From a virus, in the IMG/VR virus record IMGVR_UViG_3300045885_000119, positions 1 to 35,675 of that record: a DNA stretch of 35,675 nucleotides; one strand, 5' to 3'. The notes below the pieces were generated by a model. The model was not told where the DNA came from. It saw nothing but the letters and a program-made list of their open reading frames with translations, and made no database searches. Below, one piece after another: positions 17,483-35,675 of this stretch. Within the stretch, counting starts at the first letter, position 1; every line of letters begins with the position of its first letter. The translations under genes and the position numbers were made by a program.

Positions 17483-18364
17483 ATGGCGGGCGTCTACCGC
17501 GTCCGCTGGCGTCGTCCGCCGCGTCCGCGGTTCGTCCCCACCGCGGTCGCCGGATCGGTCACGATCGTGGTCGACACCCCGGGCGCGCTCACGTTCTCGG
17601 GGCAGGCTCCGCCGCTCCGACTGACGATCGCGGCCACGCCCGGGGCGCTGACGTTCGCGGGTCAGACGATCGGGCTCACGAACGCCGTCACCCCGACCCC
17701 GGGCGCGATCACGTTCTCGGGTGGCACGGCCGAGCTCCGCACGACGCTCGTCGCGACCCCGGGTGCACTCACGTTCTCGGGCTCGAGCACGATCACGCTG
17801 CTCGTCGTCACGCTCGTGATGGTCGACACCCCTGGCGCCCTCACCCTCGCAGGTCAGACGGCGGGCCTGCGGACCACGATCGCGGCTACGCCCGGCGCGG
17901 TGACGTTCTCGGGCTCGACGATCGGGCTCACGCAGGCCATCACGCCCACGCCCGGCGCGGTGACGTTCTCGGGGCAGACGACGCCGCTTCGGCTGACGAT
18001 CACCACGGCGCCCGGCGCGATCGTGTTCTCGGGCTCGACGATCGAGCTCCGCGAGGTGCTCACCCCTACGCCGGGCGCCCTCACGCTCGCCGGCTCGACG
18101 ATCGGCCTGACCAACACGATCACGCCGGCGCCCGGGGTGCTCACCTTCGCCGGCGCCGGCGACATCGTGTTGCAGATCATCACGCCGGGGTTCCCGGTCA
18201 CGGTCCCCGGTGCGATCACGTTCTCGGGGGCGACCACGATCGGCCTGCGGATGATCCCCGGCGTGCACCTGGGCGACGCGGGGGCCCAAGGGCGGGGGGT
18301 CGAGATCGGGATGCAGGGGCGCGGCCGCGAGCACGACTCGGAGGCCGCGAGCATCGACGCGTGA
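17483..18364 (+). CDS. Repeat-rich virion protein, eleven ~20-residue repeats (293 aa)
   Basis: After a basic N-terminus (RVRWRRPPRPRF), residues 32-258 consist of eleven tandem repeats, nine of 19-20 residues and two of 24, each of the form T-P-G-A-L-T-F-S-G-x-T-x-x-L followed by a Thr/Val-rich half. The regular strand-turn-strand character suggests a beta-stack, as in phage fibres and head-decoration proteins with beta-prism or beta-solenoid folds. The C-terminal 35 residues are Gly/Asp/Glu-rich. The stop overlaps the GTGACC element before the next gene. Repeat number can change by recombination, a common way for surface proteins to diversify. Confidence 0.7.
   Translation: MAGVYRVRWRRPPRPRFVPTAVAGSVTIVVDTPGALTFSGQAPPLRLTIAATPGALTFAGQTIGLTNAVTPTPGAITFSGGTAELRTTLVATPGALTFSGSSTITLLVVTLVMVDTPGALTLAGQTAGLRTTIAATPGAVTFSGSTIGLTQAITPTPGAVTFSGQTTPLRLTITTAPGAIVFSGSTIELREVLTPTPGALTLAGSTIGLTNTITPAPGVLTFAGAGDIVLQIITPGFPVTVPGAITFSGATTIGLRMIPGVHLGDAGAQGRGVEIGMQGRGREHDSEAASIDA
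17576..18256 (+). repeat. Tandem 60-bp coding repeats
   Basis: Eleven tandem units encode residues 32-258 of the repeat-rich protein. Most are exactly 20 codons; units 4 and 10 are 24 codons and unit 11 is 19. Codons diverge between units while the amino-acid consensus persists, indicating old repeats under selection rather than a recent expansion. Confidence 0.85.
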
Positions 18365-33943: not shown

Positions 33944-34460
33944 GACCGCGGACCCGCTGGACGAGGCCGCGTTCCTGTCGCTCGTCGGTGAACGCCTCAA
34001 GACGGGCGGAGCGGTAGGCGAGATCGTCGCCTCGGTGCTCGATGCGATGGCGCTGGCGCCCGCGTTCGAGGAGGAGCTGGTCCGCGTTGGTGCGGTCAAT
34101 GTGGCGCTGAAGGCGCTCAACCAGGCACCGCGCCGACACGCGTTGAGGACCGTCAAGGTGCGCTCACAGCGCGACGCGACCTCGGGGTACCGGTCGGTCG
34201 TGGTCCGCAGCGAACTGCGGGATTGGCCGCTCTCGACGGCGTCGGGACGCCGGGTGGAGTTGGCGACACCGGCCGAGGTGGACGCCGAACTGACCCACAT
34301 CGGCAACGTGATGGCAGGGCTCGCCTCGCACGCTCGCGTGCTTCGCAAGCTGCGAGACGAGGCGATCGCCGCGGGCGTCGCGACGTGCGGGGAACTGTCC
34401 GACGACGTACTTGAGGCGTGTCTGTGGGAGGGGGTCCGAGATGCCAGCAGCGAAGGGTAG
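33924..34460 (+). CDS. Hypothetical early protein (178 aa)
   Basis: ATG 33924 has GGGGGAGGGAG upstream, in the tail of the winged-helix gene. The protein is mostly helical (FLSLVGERLKTGGAVGEIVA, then VVRSELRDWPLSTASG and helices with AELTHIGNVMAGLASHARVL). The family is not recognised. It overlaps the next gene by 20 bases, so the two are coupled. A role in early DNA metabolism is inferred from position. Confidence 0.6.
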   Translation: MATRTARTADPLDEAAFLSLVGERLKTGGAVGEIVASVLDAMALAPAFEEELVRVGAVNVALKALNQAPRRHALRTVKVRSQRDATSGYRSVVVRSELRDWPLSTASGRRVELATPAEVDAELTHIGNVMAGLASHARVLRKLRDEAIAAGVATCGELSDDVLEACLWEGVRDASSEG

Positions 34461-35208
34461 GGCAGCACCGACCGTCCTCGAGGTGCCGTCGATCCAGACG
34501 GAAACGCTTGAGTTCGCGATCATCGGCACGGCACCGCTCGTCTACAACTCGATGAGCGAGAAGGCGAAGCGGGAGTTGATGCTTCCCGCGTCGCAGCAGG
34601 AGAAGAAGCAACGCAAGGCGCTCGGCGTGTTGAAGCATCACCCGAGGGAGGAGTACCGCAACTCAACCGTGCGCCTGGCCGAGGGCCCGACGCTGCTCGG
34701 GTTCCCCGCGCCGGCGTTCAAGGCCGCGATGATGGACGCCTCGGCCGACGCCGCGGCGTTCAAGACCGAGATCGCCCGGCTCGTGCGGGTGGACTTCTAC
34801 TCGATTCCCATCTGGGGCCTTCCGCGCCTGTTCATGGCCACGGTCAAGACCGCGGACCAGGCCAAGACGCCTGACATCCGCACACGAGCCATCCTGCCGG
34901 AATGGGCGACGACGATCCGCGTGACCTTCGTCGCCAACCGGCTTAACGCGCAGACGATCACCAACCTGCTGTCGATGGCCGGCGTTACGCAGGGGATCGG
35001 AGACTTCCGCCAGGGCAAGGGCAAGGGAAGCTTCGGCACCTTCGAGATCACCGACGCCGCATCACCGGCGTTCCACGCGATCCAGCAGCAGGGGCGCGAG
35101 GCTCAGGATGCGGCCATCGCCGACCCCGTGCCGTTCGACCTCGGGAGCGAGGAACTGCTCGCCTGGTGGGACGCCGAGGTTGATCGCCGGGGCGTGGACG
35201 TTGCATGA
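34441..35208 (+). CDS. Widespread uncharacterised phage protein (255 aa)
   Basis: The 255-aa product matches a family I recognise from many phages and prophages without known function: an N-terminal IIGTAPLVYNSMSEKAKREL, GFPAPAFKAAMMDASADAAA, then RTRAILPEWATTIRVTFVAN with LSMAGVTQGIGDFRQGKGKG and SFGTFEI. The glycine-rich turn before F-G-x-F is the strongest family mark. It is often near recombination genes. ATG 34441 is in the end of the upstream gene; an in-frame start at 34411 is less likely. It is the last gene before the pentamer array, and is co-transcribed with it. Confidence 0.75.
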   Translation: MPAAKGRAAPTVLEVPSIQTETLEFAIIGTAPLVYNSMSEKAKRELMLPASQQEKKQRKALGVLKHHPREEYRNSTVRLAEGPTLLGFPAPAFKAAMMDASADAAAFKTEIARLVRVDFYSIPIWGLPRLFMATVKTADQAKTPDIRTRAILPEWATTIRVTFVANRLNAQTITNLLSMAGVTQGIGDFRQGKGKGSFGTFEITDAASPAFHAIQQQGREAQDAAIADPVPFDLGSEELLAWWDAEVDRRGVDVA

Positions 35209-35219
35209 GTCTGCCTAGC

Positions 35220-35539
35220 GGTCATGGCGTGGCGTGGAGCGGCTGGGCCAGGCTCGGCGGGGCTCGGCATGGCGAGGCCTGGCGGTCGGGGCGGGGCGAG
35301 GCGCGGCGGGGCGAGGCCTGGCGGTCAGGGCTTGGCGGGGCGAGGCGCGGCGTGGCGTGGCGAGGCGCGGCGGTCGGGGCTAGGCGGGGCGAGGCCGGGC
35401 TGGGCACGGCATGGCGCGGCCGGGCGGTCATGGCGGGGCGGGGCGAGGCGCGCCTAGGCTTGGCGTGGCGCGGCACGGCTTGGCGGTCGAAACGAGGCAC
35501 GCCTAGGTTAGGCCGGGCAGGGCATGGCGAGGCCCGGTC
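35220..35539 (+). repeat. NNGGC pentamer array with GGTC punctuation
   Basis: The 340-bp stretch after 35208 has no gene. It reads as about 58 pentamers NNGGC, 53 of them exact, divided into blocks of 12, 7, 9, 10, 11 and 9 by GGTC at 35220, 35284, 35323, 35372, 35426, 35485 and 35536. Distances between GGTCs are 64, 39, 49, 54 and 59, each a multiple of 5 plus 4; the sixth block ends with two extra bases and decays. The first two bases of each pentamer vary, whereas GGC is fixed. A period of 5 excludes ordinary coding selection, and open frames here are artefacts of the missing stop codons. GG repeated every 5 nt with 3-nt loops could form two-tetrad G-quadruplexes on the plus strand/RNA. 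Function is unknown. Confidence 0.85.
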
Positions 35540-35548
35540 GTCTCTCGT

Positions 35549-35675
35549 GGGGGAGGGGATACCGGGGTCGCGGTCGACCGAAGGTGACGCCGGCTGCGGT
35601 GGATCGGCCCGCGCCGGGACCCACGCCGGGTCCCCTCTCCCCGATATCGAAGCCCTACTACGCCGTCACGGTGAG
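35549..35675. repeat. Terminal direct repeat (right copy)
   Basis: Identical to bases 1-127 (see left copy). It shows that the sequence closes into a circle, so the segment from 35209 through 35548 and on to 135 is one continuous intergenic region of about 475 bp holding the pentamer array and the hairpin leader. Confidence 0.9.

What the first reader, a model, noticed from the sequence alone, without database searches (positions are those of the whole stretch)
35220..35539. Punctuated NNGGC pentamer array, an undescribed-looking non-coding element
About 58 pentamers with fixed GGC and variable first two bases are set in blocks of 12, 7, 9, 10, 11 and 9, each opened by GGTC. All five intact block lengths (64, 39, 49, 54, 59) equal 5n+4. 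Simple slippage would copy the variable dinucleotides too; here they look scrambled while GGC and the GGTC punctuation are kept, which implies selection on a 5-nt rhythm. A period of 5 cannot be protein-coding selection. Runs of GG with 3-nt loops could stack as two-tetrad G-quadruplexes in DNA or RNA, or offer protein sites on every half helical turn. It lies inside the early operon, between a widespread unknown protein and the genes that follow. Possible roles are a replication or recombination site, an RNA decoy, a transcription pause region or a defence-evasion element; none is shown.
Basis: partly seen in the sequence, partly recalled or inferred. Interest (0 to 1): 0.9.

Follow-up and report, generated by a model that had tools for sequence, protein, structure and literature searches.

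The report
Phage guide-RNA array of a VIPR system

Summary
It is not an isolated oddity. That protein folds as a Csm3/Cas7-type RAMP (pLDDT 91.5) and its family profile finds PDB 36pp, "SUSP1 Vipr protein" (E 4e-40). So this is a VIPR system (PMC13142463, a 2026 preprint): the RNA carries GGY/NN repeats whose NN letters pair with DNA, skipping one base. I checked the rule on close cultured relatives: guides of Gordonia phages ODay and UmaThurman match integrated elements (18/18, 18/20 and 20/20 letters, best only with a 1-nt skip), two of them in a tape measure gene, and each match stops at the punctuation. Hence the phase breaks (mostly 5n+4) most likely delimit guides. No target of the window's own guides was found. 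A new member of a known kind; the punctuation is the added insight.

The parts
34441..35208 (+). vipr gene (255 aa, RAMP/Cas7-like, phrog_4652 family)
   Evidence: phrog_4652 E 1.3e-14; family profile hits PDB 36pp 'SUSP1 Vipr protein' E 3.9e-40; AF2 pLDDT 91.5; best PDB folds Csm3/Cmr/Cas7, Z about 10; SUSP1 gp39 hits the family HMM E 1.1e-52
35220..35539 (+). punctuated NNGGC guide (vrRNA) array
35224..35283 (+). guide block 1, 12 units (AT GT GT GC TG CA TC GG TC AT GA CT)
35288..35322 (+). guide block 2, 7 units (GG GG GA GC GG GA CT)
35327..35371 (+). guide block 3, 9 units (AG TT GG GA GC GT GT GA GC)
35376..35425 (+). guide block 4, 10 units (GG TA GG GA CG TG AC AT GC CG)
35430..35484 (+). 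guide block 5, 11 units (AT GG GG GA GC TA TT GT GC AC TT)
35489..35538 (+). guide block 6, 9-10 units (GA GA AC TA TA CG AG AT GA, then CC-GGT)
35220..35223 (+). punctuation word GGTC (first of seven; others start at 35284, 35323, 35372, 35426, 35485, 35536)
   Evidence: the same word separates blocks in L057
35540..35675 (+). sequence after the array up to the record end; no accessory gene visible and no unusual fold
   Evidence: RNA fold z -0.45; no Vap-like match in the window

Best explanation
A VIPR locus. The gene at 34441 makes a Vipr protein, a small Cas7-like RAMP. The array at 35220-35539 is transcribed with it into RNA carrying about six guides. Vipr subunits coat the RNA with one subunit per NNGGC unit; GGC is held by protein and NN pairs with target DNA, one DNA base being skipped per unit, mostly a codon wobble base. 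The RNP then represses the target gene of a competing phage, prophage or satellite. GGTC is 4 nt long, so it breaks the 5-nt register and marks the end of one guide and the start of the next. Shown here: family, fold, linkage, strand, phase breaks, and in close relatives the 1-nt-skip targets ending at the punctuation. Taken from the preprint: RNP formation, pairing rule, repression. Inferred: transcription and processing of this array, one subunit per unit here, the boundary role of GGTC itself, and what the window's guides aim at.
For: The family profile matches SUSP1 Vipr (PDB 36pp, E 3.9e-40) and SUSP1 gp39 (E 1.1e-52). The AF2 model (pLDDT 91.5) matches Csm3/Cmr/Cas7 chains. 85 of 120 array-bearing viral loci carry the gene, 54 of 65 where the main array has 20 or more units, and 85 of 87 genes are on the strand of the nearest array; 16 viral stretches fetched for other reasons (170 kb) carry none. 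Inter-block GGY distances are 4 mod 5 in 162 of 271 cases and 0 mod 5 in 23. In 301 Mycobacteriaceae genomes ODay guide 3 matches one contig at 18/18 letters and ODay guide 1 matches 3.5 kb away at 18/20, both in one tape measure gene. UmaThurman guide 6 then matches 20/20 in a region picked for another guide. In these regions skips of 0, 2 or 3 reach at most 15. None of the three matches continues into a neighbouring block. The window's NN letters fit codon positions 1+2 better than any other codon phase, as do the summed letters of 66 VIPR loci; swapping the NN letters removes this.
Against: No target of the window's own guides: exact or near-full patterns of blocks 1, 3, 4 and 5 found nothing in viral contigs, and block 1 found nothing in 399 Mycobacteriales genomes. 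The few block 5 matches look like chance. No tail or leader of the SUSP1 kind is seen between blocks. The accessory gene cannot be seen because the record ends. Block 2 (7 units) is shorter than the 9-16 repeats reported. The targets tested come from relatives whose punctuation is a single A or T, not GGTC.
Confidence: 0.93

Rival explanations
1. A plain short tandem repeat that grew by slippage, with no function.
For: GC-rich short-period array; GG-GA-GC runs recur in several blocks, so some copying took place.
Against: GGC is fixed while NN varies; the same unit with different punctuation words sits beside the same gene family on the same strand in many phages; guides of relatives match targets.
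Confidence: 0.02
2. A protein-coding repeat (open frames run through the array at 35205-35675 and 35224-35457).
For: Open frames exist, and similar ones are annotated as genes in Gordonia phages Pipp and UmaThurman.
Against: Period 5 gives the same pattern in all frames; the 4-nt words shift the frame every block; most loci use punctuation that breaks any frame.
Confidence: 0.01
3. A DNA site (replication or recombination locus, protein sites every half turn, G-quadruplexes).
For: GG runs at 5-nt spacing.
Against: Strand bias relative to the RAMP gene is nearly total; the RNA fold of the array is unremarkable, z -0.86; target matching explains why NN varies. G-quadruplex formation was not computed.
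Confidence: 0.02
4. A VIPR array in which GGTC is not a guide boundary but lies inside overlapping (staggered) guides, an architecture the preprint mentions.
For: The preprint reports staggered arrays with overlapping vrRNAs; its supplement could not be read, so GGTC-type arrays may be these.
Against: In ODay and UmaThurman, matches end at the phase break on every side tested.
Confidence: 0.2

Closest known systems
VIPR systems (Viral Interference Programmable Repeat), PMC13142463; SUSP1 and P. fulva, type II
   Same: Vipr RAMP protein homologous by sequence; flanking arrays of GGY/NN pentamers on the same strand; phage-borne; 1-nt-skip targets shown here for close relatives.
   Different: Many guides in one continuous array separated only by a 4-nt phase break, with no ~100-nt units carrying structured tails as in SUSP1; the accessory gene is beyond the record end; which of the seven types it belongs to was not determined.
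VIPR loci of Gordonia phages ODay, Ecliptus, Pipp, UmaThurman
   Same: Nearest cultured relatives of the protein (about 31-33% identity over three quarters of it); array directly after vipr; 4-nt steps between blocks.
   Different: Punctuation is a single A or T between GGY motifs, not GGTC; GGT is more frequent; a 140-aa gene follows the array.
Class 1 CRISPR RAMPs (Csm3, Cas7)
   Same: Fold; the RNA-coating role is inferred.
   Different: No CRISPR array or cas operon in the window; 5-nt instead of 6-nt rhythm; non-contiguous pairing.

Membership tests
VIPR system | Vipr protein: single-domain RAMP homologous to known Viprs | tested here: met
   PDB 36pp E 3.9e-40; SUSP1 gp39 E 1.1e-52; Csm3/Cas7 folds, Z about 10
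VIPR system | Glycine-rich loop of RAMPs | tested here: met
   In the 48-member alignment G185 and G199 are invariant and G181, G187 and R190 nearly so, within a G-x-G-D-x-R motif near the end; assignment as the G-loop is by sequence only
VIPR system | Flanking RNA array of alternating GGY and variable NN | tested here: met
   54 of 58 units end in GGY, NN varies; 12 nt after the vipr stop codon, same strand
VIPR system | 9-16 repeats per guide | tested here: inconclusive
   Blocks of 12, 7, 9, 10, 11 and 9-10; one is shorter. The range was given for type II
VIPR system | Structured invariable 3' tail (described for the SUSP1 clade) | tested here: inconclusive
   Only 4 nt between blocks; sequence after the last block folds no better than shuffles; the preprint says array architectures vary between types
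VIPR system | NN letters match DNA with a 1-nt skip | tested here: inconclusive
   Window: no target found. Relatives ODay and UmaThurman: met
VIPR system | Accessory vap gene | not testable with these tools
   Record ends 136 nt after the array; no Vap-like match elsewhere in the window
VIPR system | Carried by a phage or prophage | tested here: met
   Terminase, portal, fused protease-capsid and tape measure genes in the window; capsid closest to actinobacterial phages
VIPR system | Guide RNA expressed and bound by Vipr; target repressed | not testable with these tools
   needs experiment
CRISPR-Cas class 1 | Direct repeats of about 25-40 nt separated by unique spacers, with a cas operon | tested here: not met
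   No such repeat family near the gene; neighbouring genes have no cas match in Pfam or PHROGs

The most novel reading that the evidence does not exclude
The punctuation is a general rule: compact VIPR arrays carry many guides in one transcript and separate them by a phage-specific word whose length breaks the 5-nt register (most often 5n+4), which stops the Vipr filament and so sets guide ends without a tail, ribozyme or separate promoter. This would be a guide-processing logic not covered by the published array types.
Probability: 0.35. Interest if true: 0.7.

Novelty: new member of a known kind. Interest (0 to 1): 0.55.

Why it matters
VIPR was reported in April 2026 as RNA-guided DNA recognition older than CRISPR. 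They also extend the 1-nt-skip rule to cultured Gordonia phages, whose guides converge on small integrated elements carrying a tape measure gene, so a phage-host pair for direct testing already exists in a laboratory host.

Tried and rejected
(1) Exact patterns of window guides in viral contigs: blocks 5 (11 units), 4 (first 9 units), 1 (first 11 units, and an inner 9 units) and 3 gave nothing. (2) Eight units of block 5 gave 12 viral hits, four in one homologous head-closure (Hc3) gene with nine units matched; no other window block matches those phages, and about a dozen hits is what I would expect of a 16-letter pattern by chance in a collection of that size (no shuffled control scan was run), so not claimed. 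(3) Nine units of block 5 in genome contigs: two hits, one in an ordinary mycobacterial chromosome stretch (LmeA, PhoU and LytR neighbours), one in an unrelated gut bacterium; taken as chance. (4) Block 1 in 399 Mycobacteriales genomes: none. (5) A scan of all held arrays against the DNA held at that time gave no excess over shuffled guides. (6) Close relatives of the window's Vipr by peptide patterns: none found. (7) blastn of the array against phages: no match, as expected for low-complexity DNA. (8) Rfam: no family in 34000-35675. (9) Unusual RNA structure of the array or of the sequence after it: none. (10) First profile iterations were contaminated by translated arrays and were redone with the arrays masked.

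Full report
What is there. Window 35220-35539 holds 58 pentamers NNGGC in six blocks (12, 7, 9, 10, 11, 9), each opened by GGTC; block lengths 64, 39, 49, 54 and 59 are all 5n+4. GGC-NN-GGC occurs 44 times against 2.9 in shuffles, and only at periods 5 and 10, plus 9 across GGTC. The first two columns vary (1.7-2.0 bits) and the last three hardly do (0.1-0.3 bits). The array begins 12 nt after the stop codon of the gene at 34441, on the same strand. The record ends 136 nt after it.

How widespread. Many are long arrays with their own punctuation: GTTC (L009), ACCG (L032), ATCG (L087, L120), GGTC (L057), TACCTC (L090), GAGGAAC (L116) or a single A (many). Of 271 distances between neighbouring blocks, 162 are 4 mod 5 and only 23 are 0 mod 5, so the usual break shifts the register.

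The linked gene. A profile grown from the window's 34441 protein, with arrays masked, finds a homologue in 85 of 120 loci, and in 54 of 65 where the main array has 20 or more units; several of the 11 without lie at the end of the held DNA. 85 of 87 genes share the strand of the nearest array, usually within a few hundred bases. Sixteen viral stretches fetched for other reasons (170 kb) have none. The match pattern selected for arrays, not for the gene, so the linkage is not circular.

What the protein is. PHROGs has it as phrog_4652, unknown function; Pfam has nothing. An AF2 model from 48 family members has mean pLDDT 91.5; its best PDB matches are Csm3, Cmr and Cas7 subunits of CRISPR complexes (Foldseek E about 4e-5; VIA-align Z about 10 over about 150 residues). 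By sequence the family profile finds PDB 36pp, 'SUSP1 Vipr protein', E 3.9e-40, and SUSP1 gp39 scores 1.1e-52 against the family HMM.

The known system. PMC13142463 (bioRxiv, April 2026, read) describes VIPR: a Vipr RAMP and RNAs of alternating GGY and NN, where NN pairs with double-stranded DNA with one skipped base per unit, mostly the wobble base, repressing transcription; natural targets are satellites and prophages. The window meets the defining features that can be tested here.

Does the code work in this kind of array? The window's nearest cultured relatives are Gordonia phages. ODay, Ecliptus, Pipp and UmaThurman carry the array directly after vipr, in blocks set apart by GGY-A/T-GGY, a 4-nt step. 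In 301 genomes of the family of a Mycobacterium (Mycobacteriaceae in GTDB), ODay block 3 with a 1-nt skip matches G139:C10:93026 at 18/18 letters, and ODay block 1 matches G139:C10:89489 at 18/20; both lie in one 1802-aa frame that reads as a tape measure protein. The other regions fetched for ODay hits (G100 twice, G104, G114, G212) also carry homologous tape measure genes. In the G212 region, fetched for an ODay hit, UmaThurman block 6 matches 20/20; by my estimate chance would give about 2e-7 such matches in the roughly 120 kb searched. Its site is in a 73-codon frame near an excisionase-like gene of the same element. In these regions skips of 0, 2 or 3 reach at most 15 letters for these guides, and shuffled guides at most 17. 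ODay's own DNA around its vipr and the first half of its tape measure gene gives only chance scores. For all three sites the match ends with the block: neither neighbour continues it at any of six offsets (ODay block 1 could be tested on one side only). This is the main support for reading the phase break as a guide boundary.

The window's own guides. Their NN letters fit codon positions 1+2 of the window's genes (log-likelihood +8.3 against genome dinucleotides) and no other codon phase (-2 to -28). Over 66 VIPR loci the summed score is +81 for positions 1+2, negative for the other five phases, and -246 when the NN letters are swapped. This agrees with targets in coding sequence with the skip at the wobble base; it is indirect, since codon use is taken from the carrier, not the target. 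No convincing target was found (see Tried and rejected). The capsid is closest to phages of Mycobacterium, Gordonia and Rhodococcus (about 43%), so the host is probably an actinobacterium.

Verdict. Its suggested roles were wrong, and the element is no longer undescribed. What this analysis adds is that compact arrays separate guides with register-breaking words, that matches of relatives stop there, and that Gordonia phage guides aim at integrated elements with a tape measure gene.

Noticed in passing
L122:4623-4892 (Gordonia phage Pipp gp43); L171:4637-4960 (UmaThurman gp40): Annotated hypothetical proteins that are mistranslated VIPR guide arrays; similar Gly/Ala/Arg/Trp-rich 'proteins' in other phage records may be the same error.
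   Followed up: partly
window 35205-35675 and 35224-35457: Open frames through the array in the window itself, likely to be called as genes by annotation programs.
   Followed up: yes
L173/L174 (G139 C10), L177 (G212 C15): Integrated elements with an excisionase-like gene, small frames and a very large tape measure gene; they look like phage satellites that carry their own tape measure protein and are targeted by guides of Gordonia phages.
   Followed up: partly
L017:3755-4255, L058:4913-5419, L120:3425-3898 and about 20 more: A 140-aa protein family next to vipr and array in 24 of 86 loci (ODay gp20, Pipp gp44), probably an accessory (vap) gene.
   Followed up: partly
L172 block 3 and L123 block 2: Ecliptus and ODay share an identical seven-unit guide (GT TA AT AT GT TC GT) while other guides differ, a hint of guide turnover between related phages.
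   Followed up: no
L111, L048, L039: Arrays whose blocks are separated by about 16-27 nt AT-richer spacers, a different architecture from the short words.
   Followed up: no
window 17576-18105: Two 60-nt tandem repeat arrays inside a coding region just upstream of the tail genes.
   Followed up: no
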